Positions 5,196 to 40,963 of a stretch of DNA of 64,000 nucleotides are shown in pieces. The number at the start of each line of letters is the position of its first letter. The first letter of the stretch is position 1. A program made the position numbers and the translations under genes. Source of the DNA: Ceratodon purpureus (taxonomy: Eukaryota > Streptophyta > Bryopsida > Pseudoditrichales > Ditrichaceae); the NCBI GenBank assembly GCA_014871385.1, contig CM026426.1, positions 38,967,799-39,031,798 on the forward strand, in the 5' to 3' direction. The notes beneath the pieces are model-generated. The model worked only from the letters and a program-made list of their open reading frames with translations, searched no databases and was not told where the DNA came from.

Positions 5196-5199
5196 TTGG

Positions 5200-19690: not shown

Positions 19691-19691
19691 G

Positions 19692-20800: not shown

Positions 20801-20822
20801 GGCCGAGAGGGCTCGGCGGGGC

Positions 20823-20830: not shown

Positions 20831-21000
20831 GGGGTCCCACTCCCCCTCAAAACTCACACTTCTCTCCTCACTTCTCTCTCTCACTCTCTCTTTCACTCTC
20901 TCCTCTCCATTCGGACTCCTCTCTCCTCTCCCTCTCTTCTTCTCTCTTCTTCTTCAATCTTCTCTTCCTTCCTCCTCTCCTCTCCCTCCTTTTCCTCAAG

Positions 21001-22120: not shown

Positions 22121-22295
22121 CCCTTCCCCCACATAGTACTCTCTGTGGGATTCGGCAGGCCCCCCCCCCCTCTTGGGTCTAAGAGAGTTCCGAGACACAC
22201 TTTTTTTTGGAAGACCACCCACCCTCCCTCTCTACCCCCCCCCCCTCCTGTCCCGACGCGACTCCGGACCCCTGTCCCTCTCCCTCGCGGTCACT

Positions 22296-22478
22296 CCCTC
22301 CCTCCCTCCCTCTCCCTCTCCCTCTCCCTCTCCCTCTCCCTCTCCCTCTCCCTCTCCCTCTCCCTCTCCCTCTCCCTCTCCCTCTCCCTCTCCCTCTCCC
22401 TCTCCCTCTCCCTCTCCCTCTCCCTCTCCCTCTCCCTCTCCCTCTCCCTCTCCCTCTCCCTCTCCCTCTCCCTCTCCC
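22296..22478. repeat. (CCCTCT)n microsatellite
   Basis: About 30 near-perfect copies of a pyrimidine hexamer form a strand-asymmetric tract. Pro-Ser or Leu-Pro and Glu-Gly frames of more than 100 codons over it are meaningless. Confidence 0.95.
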
Positions 22479-22499
22479 TGTTCTTCTCTCCCAGTGGGT

Positions 22500-22990
22500 G
22501 TCCCGGCTCTATGGTTTTTCATTTTCTTTTTTTAAATCTTAACTCTTCGGTGTCTTTTTGATTCAAGACCTTTCACCGTTTTTGTTTTTGTTTTTGTTTT
22601 TGTTTTTTTTTTTTTTTTTTTTGTTTTATTTGTAATTTTTCTTCTTTGAGAAGGGGTTCTACTTCTCATTTTATTTTAATTTTTAAATTGTTACCCCTCC
22701 ACTGTTTGGCGTCTCCCGGTGTCTAGAACTTTTGTGGTAGGATGGGAGGGGAATTCAGAAATTGGAATTCGAATATTGGAAGAATGGAATCCAATGGAGA
22801 TGGGTTAATGGGATACCTATGCAACAAGGAATGGTACAACATAGGACAGTAACCAACATAATCATGACTAATTGGATCACTAATCATGATTCACATAACC
22901 CTCCATTCCTCTTTTATTTTTAATTTTTTAATTTTTACAACAATACCAAAATTTTAAATTAAGTAAATATTGGTGTCAATAAAATAGTTT
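22500..22990. other. T-rich region with poly-T, downstream of the element B methyltransferase gene
   Basis: It includes (TTTTTG)n leading into a poly-T tract at about 22579-22622 and AT-rich sequence thereafter. No gene is supported. It is positionally equivalent to 5640-6320 in element A. Confidence 0.4.
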
Positions 22991-22994
22991 GGTC

Positions 22995-25900
22995 TTAATA
23001 TCGACAGTATGTTTCATAATAGTCTGAGTCTTCATCACCTAGATGCAATGTATTATCAACTGCAGCCTGCAAATGTAGGTACTCCTTAACTGCCTGGTCA
23101 TATCTCCGCTTCGTCTTCCGTTTCTTTGGGGAAGGTAATGCAGCCTGGTGTCTTGCTGCCTGCTCAGCGTAAACAGGCATGCGGATGACCGTAGCTGCCG
23201 GCGACAAGGGAACACAGGCCACTCTGCATACGAAGGCAGTACCTGAGAAAAGACGATTCTAAGCCTGATTGTTAGAATCACAAAATGTTCAAAATTTCTG
23301 TCTAATACGAGACCTGACAACTACACTCACTGCCTGCTCTTCGGTCGGATTTCCGGAGGATGGTAAGCTAGATCTTCTTCTCCAAGCAGGATTGGAGGAA
23401 CCTCGTCATCGTCGTCGTCGTCTTCGTCTTCTTGGTCACTGTGATGGCCCCCGGCAGGTGCACGGGGAACCAAGTCAGATCTCATCGGAGCAAGAAGTTC
23501 CTTAAATATGTCCTCGTCCTCCTCAATAGCGACAATGTGACGGCCACGATTGCGACAGACTTGTATGGAGTCGCCTACAAAAGTCGACAAAGAAGGGAGT
23601 TAGTATTAAGGCGAACTACAATCTAGAAGTACGGAAAAGTCAGTATCATAAGATTGTAAGGCCGTACCTGTTCCCGCCGTGAGGTCAACCACAATGCCTC
23701 CAGGCGATGTGCAAGACAAGACGAGGCAGCACCAGAAATACTCATCAAGTTCCTTAGGACCACGCCAAGGCCGATTGCCGTTCATCTTCACAGTCTTGGC
23801 GTTAGCCGAGTTCATAAGGACGTTTCCCTTAACAACGTCAATATCTCCACTCTGGGTTGGCTTCAGAGTGAAGGCAGAGTTCCGAGTGCCGGAGGAGAGA
23901 GATGCTGGCCTCGGATCCGTAGTGCATCTGACATAAAGACCGACCCTAAAAAGGTTAGTGGTCTCAACCCTAGATGGAACCCGAAGCGGCAGTATGTTGA
24001 AGCCGGTCCACTCCTTAAACATCTTGAACCCGAGGCTTGGGCAAAAGGACCTGATAGTCTTTCTTGTGGAGTTATCGTCAATGTAAACAAAGACAAGGGC
24101 GCCATCATCGTGCAAGAAATTATGGGCAAACACAAACGTGTTCTTGAACCAGTCCTTGTGAAGGACATTCCACTTAGGGACATCCGAGGCCGTTCTTGAT
24201 ATGCCTGGTACTGGAGAGTTGTCTGGAACCTGGGCTACTACAAGGTCCACCATTCCGTCCTTCATCTGATTCCTCCCATAAACCCGGCAGGTTCTATCAT
24301 AATTGCACTGGCTCGCGAACTTGTACACCGCATCGAACTTAGATTTATCGATCATACCATTCATGATCAAATCGAAAGTATAGGAGTTCCCTAATGGCAA
24401 AGGTCCATCCAGTCTACGTTTGGACTTGGGAGATTTAGGGGACTGCTGTCCTCTTCGTTTATCACCCGGTGACCCTACAACTGAACCAGTACCACCGTCT
24501 TGTGATGCAGTGGTCCTCTGCGCTACGCGTCTTCCTAGCTGCGCCTGCGATTTCTTTCTCCTCTGACCAACTTTCAGGTCCTCCGGTGCAGCCTCTTTGA
24601 CATCAGGTACTTCCTCCGGAGTGGCGTTAACAACACCTAGTTGTCTCTTCAGATCTTCCTTGTCGGCGGGGCAGAAAGTCTTTGCACACTCGATGTACCA
24701 ACCGCATTCCTTCAGATGCGCTAACGGAAATGTGATCTTCTGATACTCCGTGAAGATGAACATGTCATGGCCAGGCTCAGTTTGGGTATCCATCCAATCT
24801 GGTTCTTCCGTGATAGCCTTCTTTGGCATCAACTCCCTCTTGTAGTATCTATAAAACAGAGGGAATTGGGTCAGATTTCTTTATCTGCGCAAAGGCCAAA
24901 CTAAACAAAAGCCGACCAAGGTTTTGATACTCACCGATAGATAAACCGGCTTACGATGAGATGGCCCTTAGGCACCTGGTCCCAAGTGTCGTTCCGCTGG
25001 AATGTATGTTTCCCACCAAAGACAGCTGGAAAAGCTTTTTGCCAAACCTTCTTCTTCTAGTAGTTTAGGTACACTTGCCAGGACTTCACTTCCTTAGTCC
25101 AGACTGGAACCGGATCTTCAACCATGATAGGCTCAATCTTCTCCGTGATCTCGTCCTCCAGCAGCGCATAGAAGCATGCTTTGTGCAGCCAAGCATGAAG
25201 TTGAGACTCACTGCACGAAGACCTCGGAAAACTGTTTGCAGCCCTGGTATTATCAGAGCCGTTCCACATCTTCAGCCAACGCACTTTATACAACTCCTTC
25301 ACGTTGGTGGTCGCAATAAGCTGTAGTTTGTCTAGCCCCATCTCGCACTTCTGATTAGGGCGATGGTTGTAATGGTTCCGTATCTGAAAGGACGTACACC
25401 CAAACAACCTAAGAATCAAAGTCATGCAATAACAAACGCTCATCAGGCCATTCCACCGTTGCAGCTACACCACATCCTGGAGGCGTTAAATAACGTCAGT
25501 GACCAAAACAATCGATCCTTCGAGGAAATCTGCAAATTCAAATGGCTTATCAATGCCGAACATGACGAGCCACCTGTCTTTGCAGCTCCCCTACAGGGTC
25601 AAAATAATTTGGACAGTAACGTTCTACTGGTCATCATTTGAAATTTAAACACATCCTACCTAAAGTTCTAACTCATCAAGCAACAATCAAGTAGCAATAT
25701 AACACCAAAAAATGACTAAGTGGCTAGAAACTCGACCGCGCCTCTAAGGCACGGCAGGGGTTCTCGGTACCGAGAGACCCTTCCCAGCCTCGAAGGCGCG
25801 GTCGGGATTTGGTACCCAGGGACATCTTCGGCCCCTTCGGGCCGTAAACCCGACCGCGCCTCTGAGGCCCGGAAGGGCTTCTCGGCCCGAGAGCCCCTTC

Positions 25901-28900
25901 CAGGCCTCAGTGGAGCGGTCGGGTTTCTAGCCCCCTTTTATTGTAAAAGGGGACGGAATGGCCCATCAGGCATAAAGAACTCCATTATTGGGTTGTGAAT
26001 TAGCCTGGTGGGCCCTTTAAGCCCCCTTTGAGCTCAGAGGGGTCCGTTAAGGCCCCTTCGGGCCGAAAACCCGACCGCGCCCTTGAGGCTCGGAGGGGCT
26101 TCTCGGCACCAAACCAGACCTAAGGCACGGTCGAGGTAGTAGAAGTAAGGGCCTCGACTGGGCCTCAATAAGGAAAAATATACTTACTTGCAGAAATCTA
26201 AGTAAAGAAAGACTAGAAATTGCATACCTCTTCAATAAAACCCTTCTGTTAGCTGGGATACCACATGGAGATACTGGGTAAGGGGTTAGGAGAGCGTAAG
26301 GGGAGGGTCCGAGACGGGTTAGGGGGCAACAACGGTCTTCAGGTAGGGTCACGGTCACCAAGGGTTCAACAGGCTTGGTCTTAGGGCCAGGTGTTACCCA
26401 GTCACCAATGGAGGCAACTGTCCCGATACTGGGACCCAGACCGTTGGTAGTCGTAGCGAACCAAGGCAGCCCTTGAAGGGGAGGTGCCAAGACGAGGTGC
26501 GGCTTGTCCTTGGGAGCAAGTCTTTGGAAACCGTGGAAACCCTGAGCAGGCAAAGAGCCCGAAACCCCAGAGAGAGGTGATACAACAGAGAAGATGGAAA
26601 GACGAGTAATAAAGGAAGTCAGGGGGTTAGGGCTGTGTGCGTGTATAGGATCAATGCAGCAGTGTAACAAAGAGTAAGCTGGAAGGAGAGTAGAGTGTAT
26701 TATCAAAGAGTAAAAGGGTTTATAGCATAGCAATCAGTCATGGACACTCAGGGTGTGGGCACCGTCTAAGCTGTGACTCGACTCAACTAACAAAATATCA
26801 AAAGAGTGTTTCCCTGTTCCTAGCTACCCTGCTTTATACTTGCGTGTACTCCTTGTTTTCCTGGCTAACTGCTACTTGCTATGGGCAACTGCTACTTGTT
26901 CTACCAGTCTGAACAGCATTCCTTGTTTCCCTTGGTTGATCGCGGATGTTGCCTTGTAACATTTAGCCCTCCCTTGAAGCTTGCAATCCGTCCCGGATTG
27001 TAGGTCAGCCACGCGAGCGTTGGTATGCGGGTCTTCTATCCGGTCTGGTTTCCTCCCTCGGTAGCTGGGCGCGGCGTCGTGGGGGTGCTTGATGCCCATA
27101 AATGGCAGCTATGGCGTGGGATTAATTTGGCTTGGTGCAGCTTGTGGTGGTGCTTGCAGGCGTGGCGAAGGCTGTGGCGTGTCGTCCTGGTCGGTGAGGT
27201 GTTCCGGGATATCCACGCGCTCCGCTTGGTCAGCAAGGTTGATATGGGCCGGGCTGACTGGGTGTAGATTCTCCTGCAAGGGTGGCACTGGACTGGAGGT
27301 GTGCGGATTCACCTGCGGTGGCTGTTTTGGGTTGGGTGGTGGTGCGATGTCCATGGCTGGCTGCGGGAGCAGGGACAGGGCCTCCATGTCATCGTTGTCG
27401 AGGTCCAAGTTCTCCATATCCATGTTTTCCCACGCATTTTCGGACTGCTCCAATTCCAGTGTGGTTAGGGCATCATCAATGCAATGGTCAAGGAACTCCT
27501 TGGGTGGATCTGCCGAGGTGGAGGGATGATCCAGTAGCCATTTGTATGCGTTGGTGGCGATTAGATTGGCTGCACTATGAACCCAACCCACCTTGTTGGC
27601 CTCGAAGTCTTGCATGGACTGTTCCACCGCGATTCGCTGCTCCTGTAGGTGCGTACTATCCTCGGCCTCCTGTGAATGGTGTCCTTGTCTGATCGTGTCA
27701 TTGTGAGCTGTTAAGGCTTTGAATCGTGCAAGATACTCCTGACTCTGCTGCTCTAATTTTTGAGCTCTTTCTACGGCATTTGCTTTCTCCTTGAACAGCA
27801 CGTCCACATGATCCTGTGTAGCCCGTAGCTCGAGTTCCAAACTCGCCACCTGGTGCCTGAGATTGGTCAATGTCTGTTCTTTTTCCTCCAGCTGCTGTCG
27901 AAAATCTGTGCTCGTGTGCTTTAGGGTGCGCTGTGCCTGGTCTCGGACTCCTTGGATAGCAGTAGTCATCTTGCGGTTGTATCTCTCCTCGATGTCCTTG
28001 TGCTCCTTGAGTAAGGTCTCATGCTCCTGCTCGGTGGTGTTGATCCATTGGAGCATTTCTCCCACGCAGTTGGCGAGAGCAGTACTCTGTGCTGCGAATT
28101 TCGTGGCGCATGGTCCCATGGTGATGGCGGTCCCTGGTTCCTTGGATGGCCCTGTACTCCGTTGGCGCTTGCTGGGACCGGGCAGCTCTGGATCCCGTGC
28201 TGCAGCTGCCACAATGTCGCGCTGAACATCGTGGAATGTGCCCATGAGGGGACCCCGGTTATGGCGCTGATAGAACGCGAGATAATTGGCAATTTAGGAG
28301 GTGAGAAAAGGGCCAATGGGACTGCTGTAATCTGTGCGCTGCCTGTGTCCCCGCAGCTGGTTCATGAAGTTCTCCTCGACCATGAGGCCCCAGTTGACCT
28401 TGGCGCCTTGATCAGCCAGGAGCAGGAGGCTCAATTGCTCCGGCAGAATGCCGTTGCAATTATTTTGGAAATATACTTGACTCAGGACTCCACGCATACG
28501 AGAAAACCAATGGTCCTTCATGTGGTTCCCCAATGCAAAAACATCGTACCTGCCATCATCCTTGAGCTGAAGGGTGCCCACGCGGGCTGCAATGTAGGGC
28601 TTCGGATGACCACACTCCTCGCTCCATGCCGTGATGCCCATGCCATCCCAGCCAAAACATTTATGCAAGTAGCGACTGGAGAACTGAACCTCTATGCCCT
28701 CTACCACTCCTGAAGGGAATTGCTCGGTCTCACTACGGGTACGCATGGAGGAGACGAATTCGGTGCAATGCTTAGTGTTCACCTTGGGCTCGCAGAGGGA
28801 GAAGTAACGTGCTAATCCTACCCCGGTAAGCCAGATGAGATCAGGCTGGCGCTTCCACTCAGGTATCATTCGGGGAACATGGAACGTTGGTGTGATTTTC

Positions 28901-31900
28901 TTGCGTTCCATGGGATCTAACTCGTGGGTGAGAGGGGCGGGGTGCAGATGAGGAGCGCGAAGACAGGGAGGCAGGCTGCGAGAGAGGTGTTCAGCAGAGT
29001 TCTGGAGGAGAGAGAGGAAGAAGACAGCCCAAGGTGCCAAGGGAATAGGGAGGGGATGGTGCCTTGGCGGCCTGGATGTGACAAGGAGGGATCTCCATGG
29101 ATTACCGAGGGCGATGGCTGGGTATCCTTGAAGGTGATGAGTAGCTAGCGCTGTTGGTGGCGGCTGAGGCCCCATGATGCGGAAGCTAGGAGAGACTAAA
29201 GCTGTCCCTTTGATGGGATGTTCCATGGAGTCCCGGTTGTCACAGAGGCTGACCTGGACCATGCTTACATGGACTGCCATGGTGTCCATGTCCTCTTGGG
29301 AATCTGTGGTAGCCTGGGTGTCTTCTGTGTCTGCTATAGCTTGCGCCTCGGTTGCCAAGGTCTTGTAAACTTCTCCTAAACTGAGTTGAGGAGTATTTGT
29401 GGGATTGTCCGAATGATAATGTTTTAATTTGGTTGAGTTGACAATGGTTGCGTGACTGTCAAAATTTTCCTTGTTTACCAAGAGCACAGTATTATTAGGT
29501 AATACTAATTGGACCCTATATGGTCCATGCCATATAGACTCGAATTTAGTCTTGCGTATTTTGGGGTCCCTGGGACACCACAAAACTTGGTCGCCCTTCT
29601 GAAAAATTCACGGGGGCTTGGTGGCCTGAAAATACCGGGCAGTCAATTCTTGTTTGAGAGCGATATTTTTGATGGCGAATGCCCGAACTTCTTCCAATGC
29701 ATGGATGTCTTGGACCCGGGCAGCCAGGACGCGATGTGGATTATAATCTTTTGGCTGCAAGGTTTGAAAAGTGGGAGCTATATACTTTGTAGGCAAAAGC
29801 GGCTGAGTTCCATAAACCATCTCAAAAGGACTGACCTGAGTTGCAGTCTTAGTTGCCACGCGATACGCCCACAAGGCTGCTGGGAGACAGTCTCCCCAGT
29901 CGGACTGGTTTGCATGGATAAATCTGCGCAACATGTTAATCAAGGTTTTGTTGGTAGACTCGGCTTGGCCATTTCCCTGGGGGTAATAAACTGTACTGGT
30001 TCGATGCTTTATGATGTGATTTTCCATCAGGTCATCAATGACTGCATTAACAAAATGGGAGCCTTGGTCGGATATGATTTCCAAGGGGCAACCAAAACGT
30101 GTGATAATGTTTTCATATATGAAGGCCGCGGTTACCATGGCAGTATTAGTTCGTAAGGGTTTAGCCTCCACCCATTTGGTGGTGTAATCCGTGGCAACTA
30201 GGATATATTTGTACCCTTGTCTGGTTGCAGGTTTAATTGGTCCAAGAAAATCAAGACCCCAGCGTTGGAAGGGACCGAGGGGTGGGATGGATTTCAAAGG
30301 GACACGTCCTTGGTATTGGAAATTCGTCGTAGAAACTTGGCAAGCGTGGCAGTTTCTAATATATTCATGTACGTCTTTGTGCAGTGTGGGCCACCAGTAA
30401 CGAGCAGCTAAAATCTTTTTGATTGTTGTATCTGGACCTTGGTGTCCTCCGGCTGGGCCGTCATGGAGGATGGCTATGAGGTTTTGTTCCTGCCCTGTTG
30501 GAACGCAAAGTCTGATTTCCTGATCTATACCTCGGCGATAAAGTTGTCCCTGGACCATGGTATAAGGTAAGGCGCTGCGCACAAAACTAACCCGTCTAGT
30601 GCCTGAGAGGCCAAGGGGAATCGTACCTGTAGTTAGATACTTGATGAGTTCACCCCGCCAGTCTGTGGGGATGTCTATGTCCAGGCTTGCGGCTTGAATA
30701 TATGATTCATTAAAGGAGTCATCGATACCTTCCTCGGTAGCCTTGGAATCCCTGGATAAATAATCTGCAACTATGTGTCGCTTTCCGGGTACATAGACTA
30801 CCTCGAAGTCATATTCCAAGAGTATCATGATCCACCTTGCTACACGTCCGGTCACCAGGGGCTGATTTACCAGGTATGATAGACTGTGATGGTCTACCAT
30901 GAAACGGAACTTATTTCCTAACAGGTAGTGTCTGAATTTTTTAACTGCATAGATCATGGCTAAGGCTTCTCTTTCCGTTGTTGAATAATTCCTTTCTGCT
31001 TGATTTAACAGGCGGCTGGCATACGCAACAGGCTGATCATACTTGCCATTTACATTCTAGGCTAACATAACTCCCACGGCAATATTGGATGCATCAGTGT
31101 GCACATGGAAAGGTTTGGTCCAGTCAGGGGCTATTAAAATGGGCGCATTAGAATATGCAACCTTGATTTTATCCAAGGCTGCCTGGGCTGCAGGGGTCCA
31201 ATCTTGAGGATATTTATACTTGGCATGGTTGAGTGCGGTTATAGGTGCAGTAATGTGAGCCAATTTTTCAATGTATATGCGATTGAACTGTGACAACCCT
31301 AGGAGCCTTTGAATACCTTTCTGATCCGTGGGAGGCGTGATTTCCAGGATGTCCTTGATCTTTTCAACGTCTGGAAGCTTCCCCTATTTGCATACGATGT
31401 ACCCCAAGATTACCCCAGCAAAAAATAAAAACATACATTTCTCGGCGTTTAAACTTACCCCATTAGCTCGGCATGCGTGAAAAATTTGCCGAAGGTGAGT
31501 AATATGATCCTTCATCTGTCCATAAACGGTACCATCATCTAAATAAATTCTAAAAAATCTCTTCAAATAAGGCCTAAAGATTAACTCCATGACCCTTTGA
31601 AATGTCATGGGAGCGTTTTTGGCCCCAAATGGCATTCTTTCAAAATGGTAAGGTCCCCATTTGGTGGAGAAAGCGGTTTTATTTTTGTCTTGTTCTGCCA
31701 TGGCTACTTGGTAGTATCCTGAAAAACAATCTAAAAAAGAATACATTTCATGGCCGGCTACTTCATCGATAATTTCTTCCATGTATGGCAGGGGGTAATG
31801 ATCCTTCTTGGTTGCAGCATTGAGTTTCTGGAAATCAACACAGATCCGGAGCGTTCCGTTTTTCTTCGGAATAATAACCATGGGAGATAACCAGGGGGCA

Positions 31901-34900
31901 GCATCCACTGGAGAGATGAATTTAGCTTTAAGCAGTTTATCTAATTCTGCTTTGACTCTTTCTGCGTAATTGGGGTTCATGCGATACCTGCGCTGTTGTA
32001 CAGGGGTCGCATTAGGTACCAGATGGATGGTATGCTCTGCAAGTGTGCTTGGAATCCCTTTTAAGTCCTCATGTCCCCATGCGAAAATGTCCTGGTATTC
32101 ATGGAATAGTTCAATTGCTGCCTTTTTGACATGATCGGGGGCATCTGCATTAATCTTAATGTTTCTGGGATTTTCCAAGGTCCCTAGGTTTACTAGCTCT
32201 ACTCGATCCTTGGCTCCATGGGTCCACCCGGTAACAACTTTGTTTTGCAGGGCCTGATTAGCAGGTATGGCCTGGATTGCGACTGTTTCTTGAATTTCTT
32301 GGGAGAAATGTGGGGGTATGTCTAGTTTTTCCTGGTCGGCCACCAAGCTTGCTAAATGGATTTCTGCCAAAGGAATCAGGTCGGGGTTAGCCTGGAATAC
32401 CATGGCTTCCTGTTTTGGGGAGAGACCCTGTACCCAATTGGTGCCGGCTTTGCTACGGATTTGGTTGGCTTTAGCCTTGGTGATGCAGCTATCAACAGGA
32501 ATGATGACTGTTTTGCCTTGGCGTTGTATGCGAATTTGGTTTCGAGACCAGTCATGGATAGCATTCATGTCACGTAACCAAGTTCGGCCCAGGATTACCG
32601 GGAAGTTGCTACTGTCGGGCATGTCTATGACCACAAAGGTGGCCGGTGTAGAGACCCCATGAGTGGTAATAGCAACCGTGGACAGTATGCCCAGAGGTGT
32701 AACCGGGGCATCATTTGCAATACGGAGTATAAACTGAGCGAGTTTGGGGGAGGGTAAGCCCAACTGCTTTCTAAGGTGGTTGCTCATGACATTCACACCT
32801 GACCCACCATCGACTAATACGTTGGTTAATTCATGGTTTCCAAGCTGTAAGTGAATTACTGCGGCATCAGGATCTAACGTAGTGGCATTTACTTCGATGA
32901 CCGCAGGATCTTCCGTTCCTCTGGGCGACGAAGCTTGTTGTAAGTATTTTTGAAGTTCTGGGCTTAACTGTAATAACTTGGATAAGGTAATTGTCACATT
33001 AGTATCTTCTAAAATCTGCTGTATGGGCAAGTCTTTGTTGGTGCTTTCCAATCCGGCTTGCAAATCCTGACGGATTCGGTGAAGGCGATTCCAATGATTT
33101 TCTGCAAATGGTTTCCTGGGCTCTATCACATGTTCATCTGGGGTACCCTTGGATCGAGTAGTTACTACGGCAGTACTGATTGTAGATACTCTGGTTTCGG
33201 TTCCATGTACTTCTGTAAGAGTAACGCCTCCTCTCCTTGGATTACCAGGGGGTTTGGCATTGTCTTGGATGCCTTGATTTCCTGGGTTGGAACGGTACTG
33301 TGCCCACCTTTGATGCAATTGGGGGCAGTCCCGGCGTCTATGGTTTGTAGACCCACACTCCCAACACGCGTCACTCCTACCTGGCTGAAAAACATCAACA
33401 TTGATCTCCTCGGGGTATACGGCTGCCGTGGTAGATCGAGGGCGTCGGTTATCTTCTGGTCGAGTTTGATTTCCTGCATACCAACATCGACCACCATGGA
33501 TTTGTCCACAATTGGAACATGGTACCAGGGCGGGTCGGCTTTCTATGCGTACATTGGGCAAGGGCAGCAGTGGAGCCTGGATCTTGTTCAAGGCCCCTAT
33601 TCTCTACTAATGTCATTAGCTGCGCTCAAGATATCTTGCAGGGTTTTAACTCCACGGATTACTATTCCCTGCTGTATCCAAGGTAATAGTCCCTTTTTAA
33701 ACCACTCACATAAATAATCTTCCTCGGGTCGTTGGCTCAGTTTGTCAGCCAACTGCTTGAATCGATCGTAAAATTTATCGACTGGTTCGCTCTTTTCTTG
33801 GGTAATGCTCCCCAGAGCTCGTAATACTTCTGAACTAGTTTTAAGTTTTCTGAATTTGTGCAAAAAACTCTGCTCCATTTCCTCCCACGTGGCCTGGGAA
33901 TGTTCAGTTTCAAAATCAATATACCAGTTGATATGATTTCCTTGGAGAGTTGTACCAAAGATGTTCTGTAAATCTTTAGTATTTGTGACGCCATTTGTGC
34001 GAGCAATGACTTTGAATCTTCTGACGTGCCAATCTGGGTCTCCGGATTCATCAAACACTGGGTATGATATCTTGGGAAATTTAGAGTTTTTGTGTGTGTC
34101 ACTTTGGCTAGGCAGCGTGGCAGCTGTATGGTTTTCTTGAGGAATAGTGGTCGATCTAAGTGCCTCAGGGAGAGCTTGGGAAGCTTGTGGTGTAGTGTTG
34201 ATAGCTTCCTGGTTTCTGCTTTCCTGCAATGTTTGATACTGGGCACTAAGTGTCTCCAGTCTAGCGTTAGTAGCCTCATTCTTGGCTACTAGGTCCGTCA
34301 TCTGCTGCCTCATCCATACCAAAAATTCCTTGGTCGTTTCTCGCTCATCTTGGTTGGCAGCTTCTTCAGCTTCGTTTATTCTTTCTAGGAGAGATGTTTT
34401 CGGGGAGGCATGGTATATTTTTGATTTGAGGGGAAGGATTGTTGAGCCACCTCAGTATTCCATCCCCAGCATGGTCGCCAAAATGTTAGCTGGGATACCA
34501 CATGGAGATACAAAGTAAGGGGTTAGGAGAGCGTAAGGAGAGGGTCCGAGACGGGTTAGGGGGCAACCACGGTCTTCAGGTAGGGTCACGGTCACCAAGG
34601 GTTCAACAGGCTTGGTCTTAGGGCCAGGTGTCACCCAGTCACCAATGGAGGCAACTATCCCGATACTGGGACCCAGACCGTTGGTAGTCGTAGCGAACCA
34701 AGGCAGCCCTTGAAGGGGAGGTGCCAAGACGAGGTGCGGCTTGTCCTTGGGAGCAAGTCTTTGGAAACCGTGGAAACCCTGAGCAGGCAAAGAGCCCGAA
34801 ACCCCAGAGAGAGGTGATACAACAGAGAAGATGGAAAGACGAGTAATAAAGGAAGTCAGGGGGTTAGGGCTGTGTGCGTGTATAGGATCAATGCAGCAGT

Positions 34901-37677
34901 GTAACAAAGAGTAAGCTGGAAGGAGAGTAGAGTGTATTATCAAAGAGTAAAAGGGTTTATAGCATAGCAATCAGTCATGGACACTCAGGGTGTGGGCACC
35001 GTCTAAGCTGTGACTCGACTCAACTAACAAAATATCAAAAGAGTGTTTCCCTGTTCCTAGCTACCCTGCTTTATACTTGCGTGTACTCCTTGTTTTCCTG
35101 GCTAACTGCTACTTGCTATGGGCAACTGCTACTTGTTCTACCAGTCTGAACAGCATTCCTTGTTTCCCTTGGTTGATCGCGGATGTTGCCTCGTAACACC
35201 TTCCCGTTCTTAGGATTTGCAACGGCTTGGAGCTTGCTAAAAAGCTTGTTGAGGGCTTGTTTTTTCTTCAGAATCGAATTGAATATAACCTCACGTAAAC
35301 GCTCCCCTGTTTGCTTATTCAGCGGCGTCGTCTGCTTGTAGTGATTGCATGCTTCCTCGCCTGCACCTGCTATCTCTTCCTGCCGCATTCAACCAAGAAA
35401 GTTAGTTTATTTAATTATTTCGACATACTCTATAAATCAGACAGGAGTGAAAAAGTTTAAGGGATTTACCGAGAAGAGGTGGTTGACCATCGTCTCTGAA
35501 GACAATGGATACCAAGTACTGGTCGACTTGTTCTTCTCCCTCAGGTACTCTTCCTTGCTGAGGATATTCTCAAAATACGTTATGGGTAGCAGCCCATACT
35601 TGTGCACCATCTTGATCTGGTGCAAGACATTTGTCTTGACATGCGCCTGCTCATTTGACCTGTCACGTCGTATGATATTAGATATCACGAACTTCATCTA
35701 ATGAAATCGACGACTTAGCATTGAGTAAGAACTTTAAGATCTAGTCTCGGAATGGTACTTACTTGTTAACTGAATGCATGGCCCTGAGAATACTTGGATA
35801 CAGATTCTTATGGATCTCAAGGACCAAGCAATCTGGCATACCGTGAAGGCGATGCCAGTCCATGTTGCCCATCTTAGCTTCATCGATGTAGCGCTTCTAG
35901 GCCGTGTAGCGGTGATTGCTATCGTAAATGAAAAACATCTTTCCGCAAAGTGGCTTCGAATCGGGGTCAGAATTCAATTCTAACTCGAATTCATTATCCA
36001 ACTGATCCCATGCAGAACTCCATTCCTGTCTGATTTCATCTGTAACCAGCTGCTCCCTCCCTTTCGTATTGGTCAGAGCCACATAGAACACTACTGACCC
36101 TACTCTGTACGCGGACCGGAACTCGCTCTGCAATCGTAAGACCTCAGACTCCAACACTGGCCTGACTTCGGGCATACTAACCATGCGGCATAAAGGAATT
36201 CTCAACCTCGAGAACTTCTTTATCGGCAGTTTCCGACTCCGGTTGACTGCAACAAAGGTGTCGTTCTCGAACTCCTTGATCATCCGAGCCTCTATCTCCG
36301 CTGATGTCACACCCTCGTCCTTTCCTAGAGGGTTTTCTGGCAATTCCTCCCCCTTCTTAACCCGCGGCCATGTCAGCTTAGCCGGCGGCGTGTCTGCATC
36401 GTCCTCCTCTTCCTCCTCTTCATCCACCAAGGGATCTTTCTCTTCCGCCTCCACTTTGGCTGTCTCCGCCCTCTTCGATGAAGGTGTACTCTCCAATGTA
36501 TGCGCCGCACCATCGTTCACGCCCTCGGCCATGGCCGTCTCCTTGTTGACATCGCCTCCCAGTTCCTCCCGTTCAGACTGCTCCGTCGCCTGCACGTCCA
36601 TGCTCTCGTCCTGCCCCTCCCCTCCTTGCCTCTGCCCAGCAGCCAGGACCTGCGTCTCTTCTACAGCCGCCTTCTGCGTCTCCTCCACAGCCGTCTCCTG
36701 CGCCTCCTCCTCTCCTTCTTCCTGCAACAATGTGTCGCAACCTAACTAGTCAGCTGAGTTGAACCCTTTCTAAAACCCTAGATACATACTTAGAAACTGG
36801 ACGCTCTGACAATGCCCTAATACCTTTTCCCGCCCTTACTTCAAGGAGTACTATCTTACCTGCTCTCGCTGGACAGCGGAGTCCGCAATTCTAACCTTCT
36901 TAGACTTCTTGTGCTTTTCTGGACGCTCCTCCCTACTTGGCCGCTTCTTACTTTTCCTTTCACTTTCTGATGACCTCTCATCTCCAGCCCTCTTCTTTGT
37001 ACCCTTCTTCTCACTTCCTGGTGACTTCTCATTCCCCGACAACCTCTCCTCCCCATGGCCCTTCTTCGACCTACCCTTCTTCACCTTCCCTCCATACTTA
37101 GGGTTAAACATGGAGACAAACTATGTAGACCGACCCGCACCCTACAAACCCTAACGACGTCACCCTAAACCGAACCCTGACTGCACTACACTCACACACA
37201 CAAAAACCGCAACGCAGTGTAAGCCAGGCACAGCAAGGCTGCGAGCTAAGAACACCACGAGGGGGCACAGAGAGACTGAGCATGGAGCTTCTCCCCCTTC
37301 TTATACCTGCTTTCAAGAACAAGGGCGCACAAACTAATGATGTCTACAATTAACACACGTACCTCTAAGCACTCAGGTATGGTGAGGGGAATTGATTGCT
37401 GGAGCGGCGTCACATACTGCGATGGCGATGTCTCACACAACCCGCCCCCCTTTGCTACTCGAGGTACTGCTATGACGGGAAGTTTTTCGAAGTCCTTACT
37501 CAATGCCTTCACGGTCCCGCCAAACCCCTCAACACGTCGCCTCCGTTCCTCAGCCTGTCTCATCCTCGAAGCTGTCAGCTGCTTTGAATTTGAAAACAGC
37601 TTGTCTCTCCCCTTCCTCTTTCTCTTTCTCTCTTTCACAGGAGTGGCGACCACTTCAGTTGAATCATCGACATGCAT
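22995..37677 (-). CDS. ParB-like domain / beta-class N4/N6-type DNA methyltransferase fusion (element B cargo gene, disrupted by a retrotransposon)
   Basis: Model exons, 5' to 3' on the minus strand: 37363-37677 (ATG 37677; basic), 36860-37096 (Lys/Ser/Glu-rich), 35763-36721 (acidic, then [20 protein letters not shown] and FFIYDSNHR, a ParB/sulfiredoxin-like G-x-HR box), about 35466-35700, 35204-35384 with its last bases at 26230-26246, 24935-25383, 23668-24848, about 23338-23574, and 22995-23241. The methyltransferase part has motif IV position ([14 protein letters not shown]), then [20 protein letters not shown], then after about 130 residues motif I ([14 protein letters not shown], with an intron in the GTG) and [16 protein letters not shown]. 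Motif IV before motif I is the beta-class order of CcrM-like enzymes, not MT-A70. The DPPY position reads QVPD. Lesions: TAG after NHRYTA and TAG after YLNY. The gypsy element splits the exon at 35204. Activity is doubtful; domain assignment is by motif only. Confidence 0.65.
25735..26130. repeat. GC-rich inverted-repeat block in an intron of the ParB-methyltransferase gene
   Basis: Repeated CGACCGCGCCTCTGAGG units, GGGCTTCTCGGCCCGAGAGC palindromes and GGCCCCTTCGGGCCG palindromes alternate over 400 bp. They include TTCTCGGTACCGAGAGAC at 25757, which has the same core as the array at 20227-20575. It may be a small foldback element; no clear terminal repeats or target duplication were found. 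Confidence 0.55.
26242..26246. repeat. Target-site duplication of the Ty3/gypsy element, left copy
   Basis: CCTTC here is repeated at 35199-35203, directly outside the TG...CA ends of both LTRs. Confidence 0.9.
26247..26961 (-). repeat. 3' LTR of the Ty3/gypsy element
   Basis: A 715-bp direct repeat of 34484-35198 that begins TGTTAGCTGGGATACC and ends GTAACA on the + strand. The long minus-strand frame at 26047-26733 lies in the LTR (it recurs in the other LTR) and is not a gene. Confidence 0.95.
26962..26980 (-). other. Candidate polypurine tract
   Basis: Just upstream of the 3' LTR on the minus strand the sequence reads CAAGGGAGGGCTAAA. Position and purine content fit the priming site for plus-strand DNA synthesis. 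Confidence 0.55.
27109..28245 (-). CDS. Coiled-coil protein region downstream of pol in the Ty3/gypsy element
   Basis: This is a 378-codon open frame with ATG at 28245. It has a Lys/Arg-containing start ([17 protein letters not shown]), a long central coiled coil with many Glu/Gln/Leu heptads (about residues 60-210), an acidic segment ([20 protein letters not shown]) and a Pro/Gln-rich tail. It is in the same frame as pol and separated from it by a single TAA, with open sequence between, so it may once have been the C-terminal part of the polyprotein. Such a protein is not part of the standard gag-pol set. Function unknown; a structural or chromatin-targeting role is possible. Confidence 0.6.
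   Translation of the reverse strand: MGTFHDVQRDIVAAAARDPELPGPSKRQRSTGPSKEPGTAITMGPCATKFAAQSTALANCVGEMLQWINTTEQEHETLLKEHKDIEERYNRKMTTAIQGVRDQAQRTLKHTSTDFRQQLEEKEQTLTNLRHQVASLELELRATQDHVDVLFKEKANAVERAQKLEQQSQEYLARFKALTAHNDTIRQGHHSQEAEDSTHLQEQRIAVEQSMQDFEANKVGWVHSAANLIATNAYKWLLDHPSTSADPPKEFLDHCIDDALTTLELEQSENAWENMDMENLDLDNDDMEALSLLPQPAMDIAPPPNPKQPPQVNPHTSSPVPPLQENLHPVSPAHINLADQAERVDIPEHLTDQDDTPQPSPRLQAPPQAAPSQINPTP
28294..29607 (-). CDS. Pol C-terminal extension after integrase, with GPY/F-like module and an unknown domain
   Basis: Directly after the integrase, and behind one in-frame TGA (29605-29607), the frame continues with [31 protein letters not shown] and [10 protein letters not shown], the usual GPY/F-like module at the integrase end. 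About 340 further residues follow that I do not recognise. The later part is well ordered ([56 protein letters not shown]). No chromodomain was seen. It ends at TAA 28294-28296. Confidence 0.6.
   Translation of the reverse strand: MFQKGDQVLWCPRDPKIRKTKFESIWHGPYRVQLVLPNNTVLLVNKENFDSHATIVNSTKLKHYHSDNPTNTPQLSLGEVYKTLATEAQAIADTEDTQATTDSQEDMDTMAVHVSMVQVSLCDNRDSMEHPIKGTALVSPSFRIMGPQPPPTALATHHLQGYPAIALGNPWRSLLVTSRPPRHHPLPIPLAPWAVFFLSLLQNSAEHLSRSLPPCLRAPHLHPAPLTHELDPMERKKITPTFHVPRMIPEWKRQPDLIWLTGVGLARYFSLCEPKVNTKHCTEFVSSMRTRSETEQFPSGVVEGIEVQFSSRYLHKCFGWDGMGITAWSEECGHPKPYIAARVGTLQLKDDGRYDVFALGNHMKDHWFSRMRGVLSQVYFQNNCNGILPEQLSLLLLADQGAKVNWGLMVEENFMNQLRGHRQRTDYSSPIGPFLTS
29608..31296 (-). pseudogene. 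Pol: RNase H and integrase of the Ty3/gypsy element
   Basis: RNase H shows [13 protein letters not shown], then a TAG (31057-31059), then [20 protein letters not shown] and the VDHHSLSYL block. The integrase has a zinc-binding H...H...CHAC region ([25 protein letters not shown]) and the catalytic residues in [19 protein letters not shown] and [10 protein letters not shown], the D, D, E triad with the usual spacing. Order RNase H then integrase directly after the reverse transcriptase identifies Ty3/gypsy. The only defects are in-frame stops. Confidence 0.9.
31384..33591 (-). pseudogene. Pol: zinc knuckles, aspartic protease and reverse transcriptase
   Basis: The frame opens just after gag, shifted by one reading frame. 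Residues about 23-100 hold cysteine clusters ([26 protein letters not shown], a CCHC knuckle). A retropepsin-like site [12 protein letters not shown] lies near residue 265 and [11 protein letters not shown] follows. The reverse transcriptase shows [60 protein letters not shown] and YLDD. The frame stops at TAG 31384-31386 and resumes unchanged at 31383. Synthesis from gag would need a frameshift or an equivalent device. Confidence 0.92.
33597..34322 (-). CDS. Gag of the Ty3/gypsy element
   Basis: The protein begins with a helical segment ([20 protein letters not shown]), then a Gln/Thr/Ala-rich linker and the retrotransposon capsid region: [79 protein letters not shown] and [14 protein letters not shown]. 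The zinc knuckles lie in the pol frame. Coding-like sequence continues upstream of this ATG in frame (to about 34420), but no better in-frame start codon is visible, so the true start is unsure. Confidence 0.85.
   Translation of the reverse strand: MVWMRQQMTDLVAKNEATNARLETLSAQYQTLQESRNQEAINTTPQASQALPEALRSTTIPQENHTAATLPSQSDTHKNSKFPKISYPVFDESGDPDWHVRRFKVIARTNGVTNTKDLQNIFGTTLQGNHINWYIDFETEHSQATWEEMEQSFLHKFRKLKTSSEVLRALGSITQEKSEPVDKFYDRFKQLADKLSQRPEEDYLCEWFKKGLLPWIQQGIVIRGVKTLQDILSAANDISRE
34464..34483 (-). other. Candidate primer-binding site
   Basis: Three bases inside the 5' LTR, the minus strand reads TGGCGACCATGCTGGGGA. It starts with TGG as expected for pairing with a tRNA CCA end. The complement resembles the 3' end of a plant tRNA-Arg (…CATGGTCGCCA); that identity is from memory and is uncertain. 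Confidence 0.55.
34484..35198 (-). repeat. 5' LTR of the Ty3/gypsy element
   Basis: A 715-bp repeat of 26247-26961, with about eight differences seen by eye, including three adjacent ones near the end (TACTGGG against TACAAAG). It is followed by the CCTTC duplication at 35199-35203. Confidence 0.95.
35199..35203. repeat. Target-site duplication of the Ty3/gypsy element, right copy
   Basis: CCTTC, identical to 26242-26246. The interrupted exon of the ParB-methyltransferase gene resumes on either side. Confidence 0.9.
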
Positions 37678-38194
37678 CTGTGACACTATCTTGCTCTCTT
37701 GTTATACTAAACATCCCGCAGAATGCCGCTCCATGCTTTAATATATCTCTCGTCATGATGAGTACACTTATTTATGACGCTTCCAACTCTTTTGGCGCCC
37801 TTCCAAATAAAGATTTCCTTAACTCAAAATTCCTAGAATTGGCGGCTGAGATCCCTCCCCTTTTTCCCATGTCAGGGAATTTACTCTGACACGGTGGACC
37901 AGCCCTAATTATATTCAGTGGCAGTCAAGAGACGGCTAGCCCTTATTATAGAGCCTTGTTGTGGCTGGTGATTTGTCGCATGATCGTCCTTTCAAGTAAA
38001 CATAGGGGGCCCGTAAACCCAGTCATCATCCCCTTTGAGTCCGTCAGGAATTCATCCTCTCTTCAACATTTGTCTCTGATATGACAAGTTCAGATTAGCA
38101 AATTCAAACGTATAAATGCAGTGGAAAATGCTGCGACAACCCTCTCAATTCTGCACTTCGTTGATTGTGTCGCTCTTTCTGAACTCCCTACGCC
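37678..38194. promoter_or_regulatory. Bidirectional promoter region of element B
   Basis: This interval of 517 bp separates the divergent start codons of the ParB-methyltransferase gene (37677, minus) and the transposase gene (38195, plus). On the + side a clear TATA box (TATAAA, 38111-38116) lies 79 bases before the ATG. On the minus side ATATATTAAAG (37738-37748) lies about 65 bases before its ATG. Sharing one region would couple expression of transposase and methyltransferase. Confidence 0.55.
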
Positions 38195-40963
38195 ATGGCG
38201 CTACCTGTCCCGGCTCAGTTCCTAGGTTCCATTTTTCTTTACGCACATGGCGTTGGAATTCCGCTTACGTTTTGGGTAGATGATGATGGGTACGCTCTTG
38301 TTTCATGTCAGCGTCTTAGTCTTAGGTTCCAGTATCAAGAGGACTCCATTAGCGTTGAGGAGGAGATTTGTGATGACCTCACTGGAGAGATCACACATAC
38401 ACTAGGCCAGGTCTCATTCGTGGACGAGAGGGATTGTAAGATGTGGAGGCTCACGCCTGGTAGGTTTAGAGTCTACGGTCTCACGGATTCCCAGATGGCT
38501 GCGTCCACCGAGATCCTGACCCCCAGACGGTCCTCTCCTTGCACCATCCAGACACCAGGAGCGGTGGACGTGAAGTTGAAGACCGACTCTGCCTCAACTA
38601 CGCCTCTCCTTGCCAAAGTTAAAGTCGAGCCGGGCTTAGATACCCCGGTTATCAATCTCTCCTCTGACGATGACGGGAGCCCGCGGACTCGAAAGTCAGC
38701 CGGATATATTCCCGCCAAAGAACTTGTCCGTCACGAGGCGGCTGTGGACACTCGCGCTTCAGATCTCATGGCAATGCCCCCTTCTTTGGACGAGTCCGTC
38801 AGTATTGTATGGTTGTTGAAGAAGCTTACTTCGCGGCCGGGTAAGAAGAACCTCCTGAAGAAGTTAGACTACGACTCCATCCGACATGAGAGAGTGGAGT
38901 ATCTGCCGGCGGAGTTCAACGGCGACGTCATCTTCAAACTGCCACCTGTCGGATCCTCTGCCTCACGATCAGCCGCCAAGTCCATGCAAGGCATGGATAA
39001 GAGGTACGATCGGCACGTGTGGACGAAGACGATCACCACCAACATCTCCAACAATATGGGCCTCTCTTTTTGGTCGTCTTCATGTGCGGGCCATTTGCGG
39101 TGCGAGAACAAGGACTGCGGGTACCTTGAGCGCGACCATCGCATCTTTGACGTGAATGAGACCGAATTTGACGGATGCACGTTGCAGGCGTTTGTTGTGG
39201 GTGAAGAGGCTCTGAAGGAATCCACTTTGGTCTGCAAGGTATGTAAGGAACCTCCCGTATGCGTTGCCACTTGTAGAGCAAGGATATTTTATGTTTCGGG
39301 CAAGGGCAATAGGACACGGGCGTGCATCCACGTAGGATGCCACAAGCACCCTGTCAAGGTGGGAGACTACCGAGACATTAAGGTAGAGATAAGTAGTTTG
39401 ATAGAAAATCAGATCAAGAACACGCCCAAGGCTACGAAGAGCGCCGTTGTACTAGAGGCCAGCAAGGACCTGATTGGTAGTTTTTTATTACGATCGGAGG
39501 ACGATCCACCGAAGACGCTCACCGTTCAAGAGCTTTACCCGGTGCTCGATAGGTGCAAAGATATGGCGTTGCCTAACATTCGAAACAAGGTCGTTACTTT
39601 TAGGTACCTCAGAAGGTATGGGGTAATGGACAGCATAACGAAACTGCGGGGACTCAGCACATGGGATTTCGTACAGAACAACATGTTCCCTAGCCAAGGG
39701 TCAGAATTTGACAAGGTCTACGTGTTCAAAATGTCCAAGCTTGGGCCCGCGAGTGGTGTCGATCTTGTGAAGAGAATGCAGCCGACGGGGGATCTGGAGC
39801 TTTCGTGGATGATGTTTGACCACGTCAAGCGCGTGCGAAATTGGACAACCATGGCATGCCACGTGTATGACTCCACGTACTGCCGGGTTATGACGATCGC
39901 ATGCTGCAACATGCAATCTGAAGACGCCGAAGCCCAGATGGTGTTCTGGAAGAACCTCAACGCAGTCATGAAGAGACACGGCGTGGAGAAGCGGAACTTC
40001 AAGGGCTTCATGGCGGACAGCGCCTAGGCTAATTGGAATGCGGTCCGGGTGGTATACGGCAATGGCAACAAGGAAGATCAAATGGAGGACCGGGAGAGGA
40101 CCTGTCAATTTCATTGGACCCAGTCCATTGTGAATCATACTGAGAAATACGTCGCCGAAGAGTTGTGGGATCAACACAAAAAGATGTGTCAGCAATACAG
40201 GAAGGCAAGATCAATGGCGGAGGTCGATGCTCTTTATCACGGGATAAGGGCTTGGTGGGCATCTGCGGGGGCAGTGTGCGAATCTGCCTTATCGAAACTT
40301 GACTTATGGCTCTCATTCAGGCATTATCGATATCGCCAATGGGGTGGGTTCATGACCGAGGTAACCACGCCACCCACTATTGTTTTCTCTTTCCCCGTAC
40401 ATGCTCATCGTAGTGACTCATTAATTGTTCATCCGTTGTTGGATCTCAGAAATTCTCGGAGGCGGAACTCGCGGAGATGCCGTCCTGCAACCTCGCGGAG
40501 ACGGTTCACAACAAGTGGCTTCAAGCATCCGGCAATAATGGCAGTGATCTGTGCGTCGCCACCGTCGACAACTTTATCCGTGCTTTTCTACAGGTTGTGA
40601 ATTATTACCAGTACCTAAAGGGCGACGTGGGGGGTTCTGGCCCCAGCAAGAAGGAGCTGAGGCTACGATCCGCAGAACGTAGGGCGAAGAAAACGGGCGA
40701 TCCAAAGGTTCTGGAGGACCCCATGCTGGGCATGCCTGGCGCCGATGAGTTTTGTACGCGTGTCCCACATCTGCCAGTTCCGTGGGAGGGTTCAATTTAC
40801 ATACTGCAAGCATATGTATTACGTCCTCTTAAAGGTATGCCTGCGTGACCCGGATGTGGAACTTTTCATCCATGCACCGACCTTTAGCTTCAACGAAGTG
40901 AAGTTACTCCTCGAGAGTGGAATCTTGACACACCCCTTCGCGGAGCCCTACAAGACAGTCTAG
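38195..40963 (+). CDS. Element B MULE transposase with GCM/WRKY-like zinc finger (one stop, internal deletion)
   Basis: Exon 1 is 38195-40360 and exon 2 starts at 40450; the intron position is conserved in element A. The N-terminal domain (about residues 1-110) is unknown. Residues about 146-165 hold AKVKVEPGL (SUMO consensus) and VINLSSDDD (SUMO-interaction motif). The zinc finger is CAGHLRCENKDCGYLERDH ... CKVCKEPPVCVATCRARIFY ... ACIHVGCHKHP. The MULE catalytic part has VYDSTYCRVMTIACCNM (first Asp), FKGFMADSA (second Asp), CQFHWTQS (the C-x2-H motif) and the acidic SEDAEAQMVFW. A TAG at 40025-40027 replaces a Gln codon found in element A. About 1 kb present in element A is missing near 40760-40790, after which the frame shifts into YCKHMYYVLL and the C-terminus. 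Confidence 0.85.

What the first reader, a model, noticed from the sequence alone, without database searches (positions are those of the whole stretch)
22995..37677. A eukaryotic transposon that carries a ParB-like domain fused to a prokaryotic-type DNA methyltransferase
The long minus-strand gene of element B joins a region with IPLCRM...FFIYDSNHR, which looks like the ParB/sulfiredoxin G-x-HR fold, to a methyltransferase in which the catalytic-motif position ([10 protein letters not shown]) precedes the SAM-binding motif (VVDLTAGTG, then [16 protein letters not shown]). That is the beta-class order of CcrM-like N4/N6 DNA methyltransferases, different from the MT-A70 type of most eukaryotes. 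ParB-methyltransferase fusions are known from bacteria and phages. Here the gene is spliced into many exons, is divergently paired with a MULE transposase and is bounded by the element's terminal repeats. I know of no description of such a cargo in plant MULEs. A role in marking element DNA or in protecting or recruiting the transposase is pure inference.
Basis: partly seen in the sequence, partly recalled or inferred. Interest (0 to 1): 0.95.

Follow-up and report, generated by a model that had tools for sequence, protein, structure and literature searches.

The report
Jumping gene carrying phage-type methyltransferase partner
Two nested, moss-like transposons each carry, back to back with their transposase, a gene for a ParB-like domain fused to a DNA methyltransferase of the kind bacterial viruses use, but with its catalytic motif replaced; similar cargo has been reported in algal transposons, so the class is known while this version appears to be new.

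Summary
The gene (37111 to 22995, minus strand) has 8 exons joined by 7 GT-AG introns and 1232 codons, but this copy is dead: two TAG stops and a 9-kb Ty3/gypsy element in exon 4. It lies inside element B (19108-42014), with inverted termini and a perfect 10-bp target duplication. B is inserted in the transposase gene of a second, diverged element (A) that carries the same gene pair. The methyltransferase fold is secure: profile match to phage ParB-methyltransferases, E 9e-11, 0 of 100 shuffles as good. The ParB match is marginal but consistent: E 0.004, 0 of 100 shuffles. All 13 phage fusions examined have DPPY; none of 8 transposon copies has it, and 5 of 5 uninterrupted ones outside B's subfamily have D-x-P-E. 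A conserved non-catalytic or altered enzyme fits better than self-marking. 309 related proteins were found; one relative is from the moss Ceratodon purpureus. The class is not new: a 2025 Ectocarpus paper reports such a gene opposite a Sola1 transposase and cites green and red algal cases. New here: MULE-like host element, moss lineage, lost DPPY.

The parts
19108..42014. MULE-like element B (22,907 bp; about 13.95 kb without the nested retrotransposon)
   Evidence: Inverted termini GGGGAAAGG.. / GAGGGAAGC.. (alignment score 29, best of 200 shuffles 17) and flanking TTGTCATGTG, found only at these two places on either strand of the window
19098..19107 (+). left target-site duplication of B, TTGTCATGTG
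42015..42024 (+). right target-site duplication of B, TTGTCATGTG
   Evidence: A's transposase frame resumes here (CHVYDTTYCRV)
22995..37111 (-). ParB-methyltransferase gene of element B: exons 37111-36860, 36721-35763, 35659-35470, 35379-35199 plus 26241-26228 (exon 4, split by the retrotransposon), 25383-24935, 24848-23668, 23574-23331, 23223-22995; in-frame TAG at 35897-35899 and 25057-25059
   Evidence: splice model, all seven introns GT-AG, 1232 codons. P0001 and P0002 (94% and 91% identical) cover the place of the first stop and read W there; no close relative that I saw covers the place of the second
35765..36310 (-). ParB-like domain with the G/S-N-H-R motif (here DSNHR; DGNHR in 119 of the 120 listed relatives)
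23331..24400 (-). methyltransferase region, beta order: motif IV position QVPD, then motif [10 protein letters not shown] split by an intron, then the acidic residue of IEED
38195..40963 (+). transposase gene of B, also broken: TAG at 40025-40027 (A has Q there), one intron near 40362-40447, and a frame change near 40.8 kb before the last conserved stretch
   Evidence: only NCBIfam match is IS256 transposase, E 0.021
26247..35198 (.). Ty3/gypsy LTR retrotransposon inside exon 4 (LTRs 26247-26961 and 34484-35198; target duplication CCTTC)
5128..44674 (.). MULE-like element A, host of the B insertion; ends approximate, degraded 9-bp target duplication TCTTGGTCA (5119-5127) / TCTTGATCC (44675-44683), 7 of 9 alike
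6940..12030 (-). decayed ParB-methyltransferase gene of element A (CDGNHR; VDLILRDLLEG; IVFDCSIGTG)
   Evidence: Pfam N6_N4_Mtase 9.2e-9, 36 bits against cut-off 26.7
17455..19107 (+). transposase gene of element A, 5' part, decayed and interrupted by B
   Evidence: 51% identical to B's transposase over the longest segment, 31% and 67% over two others; E 1.8e-131
42015..44099 (+). transposase gene of element A, 3' part, with several stops
   Evidence: 55% and 60% identical to B's over two segments
19125..19149 (+). terminal heptamer array GAGCGGA, left end of B (inverted copies at 41966-41990; related arrays at A's ends, 5151-5168 and 44645-44655)
   Evidence: 9 matches to GAGCGKWGAGC in the window, all at the four element ends, expected 0.03; the pattern was written after seeing the arrays

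Best explanation
It is a standing accessory gene of a family of large MULE-like DNA transposons, not a passing capture. Its product fuses a ParB-like domain to a beta-class amino-methyltransferase fold, related to that of phage ParB-methyltransferase fusions. In the transposon family the DPPY catalytic motif has become D-x-P-E (Q-V-P-D in B's subfamily), while the acidic residue after motif I that usually holds the SAM ribose (recalled) is kept in the three copies that cover it. I think the protein binds the element's own ends, probably the inverted GAGCGGA arrays, and works as a DNA-binding, perhaps SAM-binding, non-catalytic factor that helps transposition or keeps host silencing off the element, as VANC proteins do in Arabidopsis VANDAL elements. 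Shown: the pair, its boundaries, the homology, the shared terminal arrays, the conserved motif change. Inferred: DNA binding, the target site, loss of catalysis, and the role.
For: Same divergent pair in two elements whose methyltransferase regions are 33-35% identical and whose transposases are 31-67% identical by segment. Limits of B fixed by nesting, inverted termini and a perfect 10-bp duplication. Methyltransferase: hhalign 97%, E 9.4e-11 over 192 columns with D-V-P-E laid on D-P-P-Y, 0 of 100 column shuffles as good; Pfam 9.2e-9 for A; PDB profile hits to DpnA-type and CcrM enzymes, 1.2e-6 and 0.004. ParB: hhalign E 0.0043, 0 of 100 shuffles, similar with four other anchors. Motif change: 0 of 8 copies with DPPY against 13 of 13 phage fusions. 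Terminal arrays confined to the four ends.
Against: No direct evidence of DNA binding, SAM binding or any role. ParB membership rests on a weak profile match (probability 7.9%) and a motif; Pfam, NCBIfam and PDB gave no ParB match. Motif I is altered too (DLTAGTG, DCSIGTG, DCTAATG, DITASTG), so SAM binding is doubtful. The methyltransferase is below the Pfam cut-off in B and P0126, and unmatched in the exons of L002, P0125 and P0127; PHROGs matched A but not P0121 or L002. D-x-P-E might still catalyse something. Heptamer arrays are equally explained as transposase sites. Both copies in this window are broken.
Confidence: 0.5

Rival explanations
1. Active self-marking enzyme: the protein binds the element and adds N4-methylcytosine or N6-methyladenine to it, to protect it or signal to the transposase, as proposed for the algal proteins.
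For: Beta-class methyltransferase fold, with the acid after motif I kept in A, B and L002. PMC12477816 proposes for its algal relative that it binds and epigenetically modifies its own transposon sequence (passage read).
Against: DPPY missing in 8 of 8 copies covering that site, including 5 of 5 uninterrupted ones outside B's subfamily. In the rotifer N4CMT, changing SPPY to APPA abolished 4mC addition (PMC8885841, passage read).
Confidence: 0.2
2. Passenger: a gene captured once by chance and carried without selection, like a Pack-MULE fragment.
For: Both copies here are broken; MULEs often pick up genes (PMC6446971, passages read).
Against: Colinear pair retained in both A and B despite about 65% divergence; uninterrupted relatives elsewhere, DGNHR in 119 of 120 listed and conserved D-x-P-E surroundings; at least three intron positions with the same phase shared by B and L002.
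Confidence: 0.1
3. Host gene, possibly domesticated, beside which transposon parts inserted.
For: One relative is an annotated gene of Ceratodon purpureus, and an intron-bearing homologue covering all parts sits on a contig with no visible transposase (L002).
Against: In the window both copies lie between matched termini, B's with a perfect target duplication; 309 related proteins. L002 is only 4691 bp, too short to decide; no GAGCG array is in it.
Confidence: 0.08
4. The first domain is not ParB-like; the NHR pattern is convergence, and only the methyltransferase part is prokaryotic.
For: No ParB match in Pfam, NCBIfam or PDB; hhalign probability only 7.9%; PHROGs gave a ParB family for L002 only at E 0.25.
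Against: 0 of 100 shuffles reach the score, NHR is laid on GHxR with all five anchors tried, and the domain order is that of the phage fusions (Pfam shows both domains in the WO protein, its ParB_N at 22.9 bits being itself under the cut-off of 26.3; the 12 others were chosen by tblastn).
Confidence: 0.12

Closest known systems
ParB-like plus N4/N6 DNA methyltransferase accessory protein of Sola1-1_Ec32 (Ectocarpus; [quoted passage not shown] neither held, neither read)
   Same: Two prokaryote-type domains in one protein of similar size (1104 residues against 1232 codons), on the strand opposite the transposase, in a giant DNA transposon (21.5 kb)
   Different: Host element there is Sola1 in a brown alga; here a MULE-like element of a moss-like plant.
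Phage ParB-methyltransferase fusions (e.g. the putative DNA methylase of Wolbachia phage WOVitA1, ADW80149.1)
   Same: Domain order and beta-class motif order; methyltransferase profile match 9.4e-11
   Different: WO protein has 404 residues and no introns; DPPY in 13 of 13; no transposase partner known to me
VANC anti-silencing proteins of Arabidopsis VANDAL (MULE) elements (PMC5735166, abstract read)
   Same: Accessory gene of a MULE; VANC targets often form tandem repeats, as the GAGCGGA arrays here do
   Different: No sequence relation tested; anti-silencing not shown here
mudrB of maize MuDR (PMC6446971, passages read)
   Same: Accessory gene beside a MULE transposase
   Different: mudrB is described there as a protein of unknown function apparently required for integration; no methyltransferase is mentioned in that paper (term count 0)
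Bdelloid rotifer N4CMT (PMC8885841, abstract and passages read)
   Same: Permuted bacterial amino-methyltransferase fixed in a eukaryote and linked to transposons
   Different: Host gene with chromodomain, catalytic SPPY, deposits 4mC at transposons to silence them

Membership tests
ParB/sulfiredoxin N-terminal domain (PF02195-like) | Significant match to the family profile | tested here: inconclusive
   No ParB-family Pfam match among 52 members scanned, none in NCBIfam or PDB, PHROG ParB-like 0.25 for L002; profile-profile to 15 phage ParB domains E 0.0043, probability 7.9%, 0 of 100 shuffles
ParB/sulfiredoxin N-terminal domain (PF02195-like) | G-x-H-R motif in register | tested here: met
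   DGNHR in 119 of 120 listed relatives; D, N, H, R in all 38 rows of A8 and G in at least 90% (B itself has S); aligned on GHxR
N6/N4 DNA methyltransferase, beta order (PF01555) | Profile match above cut-off | tested here: met
   A: 36 bits against 26.7. Below it in B, 21.3 bits, and P0126, 15.9; none in the exons of L002, P0125, P0127
N6/N4 DNA methyltransferase, beta order (PF01555) | Catalytic region before SAM-binding motif I | tested here: met
   One colinear 192-column alignment to phage enzymes
N6/N4 DNA methyltransferase, beta order (PF01555) | Catalytic (D/N/S)PP(Y/F/W) | tested here: not met
   0 of 8 copies covering the site; D-x-P-E in five, Q-V-P-D in B and P0121, D-L-L-E in A
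N6/N4 DNA methyltransferase, beta order (PF01555) | Methyl transfer to DNA | not testable with these tools
   needs an assay
Mutator-like element (MULE) | 8-11 bp target-site duplication (range from PMC6446971, passage read) | tested here: met
   B 10 bp perfect; A 9 bp, 7 of 9
Mutator-like element (MULE) | Terminal inverted repeats | tested here: met
   about 43 bp in B, above 200 shuffles; A weaker, score 27 against shuffle maximum 23
Mutator-like element (MULE) | MULE/IS256-type DDE transposase by profile | tested here: inconclusive
   No Pfam transposase match; only NCBIfam match of B's protein is IS256 at E 0.021, A's fragment has none to it; D-S-T-Y, FMAD and C-x-F-H-W pattern seen in sequence, the MULE reading of it recalled
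Transposon ParB-methyltransferase accessory proteins (PMC12477816) | Both domains in one protein opposite the transposase within element termini | tested here: met
   ParB part with the reservation above

The most novel reading that the evidence does not exclude
A phage-type DNA methyltransferase has been turned, inside a land-plant transposon family, into a conserved non-catalytic (D-x-P-E) or chemically altered DNA-reading protein that recognises the transposon's own terminal arrays and controls its silencing or movement.
Probability: 0.35. Interest if true: 0.85.

Novelty: new variant of a known kind. Interest (0 to 1): 0.62.

Why it matters
The accessory class is in print for algae, with a proposed but, in the passages I read, untested role. 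The copies here point to a land-plant branch in which the catalytic motif is replaced yet conserved, which splits the question: enzyme that marks its own DNA, or a reader built from an enzyme. Intact relatives and short terminal arrays make both testable with one protein and one DNA fragment. It would also show that one prokaryote-type fusion protein has been used by unrelated transposon superfamilies (Sola1 in a brown alga, MULE-like here).

Tried and rejected
A one-nucleotide frameshift at the exon 2/3 junction, noted early, was an error of my first splice model; moving the acceptor to 35659 removes it and agrees with P0064. The first single-sequence protein search found nothing, probably because relatives are stored as single exons; exon-sized profiles worked. 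Viral contigs gave one ordinary phage methyltransferase with DPPY in a 219-residue frame (L001) and no ParB relative; genome contigs gave no methyltransferase relative and one ParB relative, L002. Phage tblastn with the L002 methyltransferase exon and with the first transposase frame of B found nothing. Rfam found no RNA family in the window at gathering scores. P0126 does not cover motif IV and P0127 reads out of frame there, so both were left out of the count of 8. Pfam DUF1015 matched 7 of 52 ParB-region proteins at best E 0.028; not used as evidence. The terminal array pattern was also looked for in the 18 fetched loci: one match, in a phage (L005), none in L002.

No genome-wide copy count, synteny check or identification of the window's organism could be made.

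Full report
WHAT IS THERE. The window is eukaryotic, plant-like DNA holding three nested mobile elements. The innermost is a Ty3/gypsy retrotransposon (26247-35198): LTRs of 715 bp, 98.9% identical, a CCTTC target duplication, and gag, protease, RT, RNase H and integrase matches. It sits in exon 4 of the gene in question. Around it is element B (19108-42014). B has inverted termini (alignment score 29; best of 200 shuffles 17) and is flanked by TTGTCATGTG, a 10-mer found only at these two places on either strand of the window. B in turn splits the transposase frame of element A, which reads ...TMACHV up to 19107 and resumes CHVYDTTYCRV at 42015. A's own termini are near 5128 and 44674. They are weaker: score 27 against a shuffle maximum of 23, and a 9-bp duplication alike at 7 of 9 positions.

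THE GENE. On the minus strand, 37111 to 22995, eight exons joined by seven GT-AG introns give 1232 codons with two internal TAG codons and no frameshift. P0001 and P0002, 94% and 91% identical to this copy, cover the place of the first stop and read W there (NHRYTAWKRY). No close relative that I saw covers the place of the second. P0121, 93% identical, covers the methyltransferase exon without a stop. This copy is a pseudogene of a gene whose exons exist uninterrupted elsewhere. A carries the same gene, more decayed, in the same orientation to its transposase (12030 to 6940): tblastn E 1e-20 for the ParB part and 1e-15 for the motif IV part. The regions align at 32-35% identity, against 31-67% by segment for the transposases.

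METHYLTRANSFERASE. B alone scores 21.3 bits for Pfam N6_N4_Mtase, below its cut-off of 26.7; A scores 36 bits, E 9.2e-9. P0126 scores 15.9 and the exons of L002, P0125 and P0127 nothing. PHROG DNA methyltransferases match A (1.3e-7) but not P0121 or L002. A two-sequence profile of A and B finds DpnA-type enzymes (1.2e-6) and CcrM (0.004) in the PDB. As a harder test I assembled phage ParB-methyltransferase fusions, starting from the DNA methylase of Wolbachia phage WOVitA1 (Pfam N6_N4_Mtase 9.4e-28; ParB_N 22.9 bits, itself under its cut-off of 26.3). tblastn found 610 phage records, 40 listed; I fetched 14 of them, 12 fusions and 2 ParB-only proteins, giving 13 fusions with WO. A profile of ten transposon sequences anchored on L002 matches the 13 methyltransferases with hhalign probability 97.0%, E 9.4e-11, 192 columns. 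None of 100 column-shuffled profiles exceeds 22.3 against 75.3 observed. The match runs through both halves in beta order.

THE CATALYTIC MOTIF. In that alignment DPPY falls on D-V-P-E. All 13 phage fusions have DPPY. Of the transposon sequences, eight cover the site: A, B, P0121, P0122, P0123, P0124, P0125 and L002; none has it. The five uninterrupted ones outside B's subfamily (P0122-P0125, L002) read VDIPEG, ADLPEG, ADIPEG, VDMPEG and FDVPED, followed by LP(V/I)PG(I/F). B and P0121 read AQVPDN; A reads RDLLEG. P0126 (does not reach the site) and P0127 (out of frame) were not counted. The substitution is thus conserved, not decay. In rotifer N4CMT the change SPPY to APPA abolishes activity (PMC8885841, passage read). 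The acid after motif I (IEED in B, LEAD in A, LEED in L002) is kept in these three, the only ones that cover it; that it binds the SAM ribose is recalled. Against SAM binding, motif I itself departs from the phage D-P-F-x-G-x-G type: DLTAGTG, DCSIGTG, DCTAATG, DITASTG.

THE PARB-LIKE DOMAIN. Sequence libraries do not recognise it: no ParB match in Pfam for any of 52 members, none in NCBIfam or PDB, and PHROG ParB-like only at E 0.25 for L002. A profile search of 5.8 billion proteins found 309 relatives among 1362 candidates (120 listed, 51 of them used in A5, all 120 in the hhalign profile). DGNHR is in 119 of the 120 listed. Against 15 phage ParB domains hhalign gives E 0.0043, probability 7.9%, score 24.6; 100 shuffles reach at most 18.3; NHR is placed on GHxR. 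Four other anchors give 24.0 to 25.2. Cross controls (ParB profile against methyltransferase references and the reverse) scored 14.5 and 10.5. I call the domain ParB-like with about 85% confidence. A structure prediction would settle it but the tool was off.

THE TRANSPOSASE. The 10-bp duplication, the termini and the pattern D-S-T-Y / F-M-A-D / C-x-F-H-W suggest a MULE (pattern recalled). Pfam found no transposase family. The only NCBIfam match of B's protein is IS256, the bacterial relatives of MULEs (recalled), at E 0.021; A's fragment does not match it. I therefore write MULE-like. B's transposase is broken too, by a TAG at 40025 and a frame change near 40.8 kb.

TERMINAL ARRAYS. GAGCGKWGAGC, a pattern written after seeing the arrays, occurs nine times in 64 kb, expected 0.03. 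All nine lie at the four ends of A and B, plus strand at left ends and minus strand at right ends. The arrays are shared by two elements whose proteins have diverged widely, so they are candidates for binding by the transposase or the ParB-like domain.

DISTRIBUTION. Relatives come from sources labelled jgi, ena, lgn and ncbi. One (P0122) is a hypothetical protein of the moss Ceratodon purpureus, tag M758_UG251900, on a 112-Mb contig; reading UG as the U sex chromosome is my inference. L002, 4691 bp filed under a cyanobacterial MAG, carries an intron-bearing homologue that covers all parts, most likely contamination from a plant or alga. At least three of its introns match B's in place and phase: after ..NK, after ..(E/K)E, and inside motif I. 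The motif I intron is also in A. One L002 intron (near 2128) has no counterpart in B. The gene has therefore probably been eukaryotic for a long time. The window's own organism was not identified; the genome tool was unreachable (12 attempts).

MECHANISM. The retained pair, the conserved but probably non-catalytic motif and the terminal arrays fit best with a DNA-binding accessory factor of the transposon that no longer methylates. Two roles remain open: helping synapsis or integration, or keeping host silencing off, as VANC does for VANDAL elements, whose targets often form tandem repeats (PMC5735166, abstract). I cannot separate them. The self-marking proposal of the Ectocarpus authors remains possible for algae and less so here.

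NOVELTY. Ten paper searches were made. They show one direct precedent, PMC12477816 (passages read), which cites Iyer 2011 and Petroll 2025 (neither held). No title or abstract beginning in the listings, which are capped, showed a moss or MULE case. Most subscription papers are not in the library, so this is a limited negative.

Noticed in passing
window 26247-35198: Young Ty3/gypsy LTR retrotransposon (LTRs 98.9% identical) with gag, protease, RT, RNase H and integrase, inserted in the methyltransferase gene.
   Followed up: partly
window 55121-58311: Pair of a Myb/SANT-like protein (+, 23.4 bits, below Pfam cut-off 27) and a DDE_Tnp_4 transposase (-, E 3.7e-33); Harbinger-like from memory.
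   Followed up: partly
window 3739-4272: DUF4218 match (E 2.6e-26) just outside element A's left end; DUF4218 is, from memory, often found with CACTA-type transposons.
   Followed up: no
window 20206-20570: Dense GC-rich direct and inverted repeats (97-bp unit), followed up to about 22480 by GGTGGAGGTGCCGAA, CGAGTCC and CCCTCT arrays, all inside element B.
   Followed up: no
window 12271-12716 and 13120-14130: Repeated CTTCGGCACCGAAG-type palindromic stretches upstream of element A's methyltransferase gene, inside A.
   Followed up: no
window 44716-45075: Tandem 150-bp repeat (2.3 copies) just right of element A.
   Followed up: no
window 35897-35899, 25057-25059 and 40025-40027: The three nonsense codons in B's two genes all read TAG. 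Relatives have W at the first and Q at the third (A); the second has no informative relative. Consistent with C-to-T decay of methylated cytosine.
   Followed up: partly
L002 1-4691: Intron-bearing eukaryotic gene on a contig deposited as part of an uncultured Synechococcales genome (CADCWO010000058.1): probable contamination in a public MAG.
   Followed up: partly
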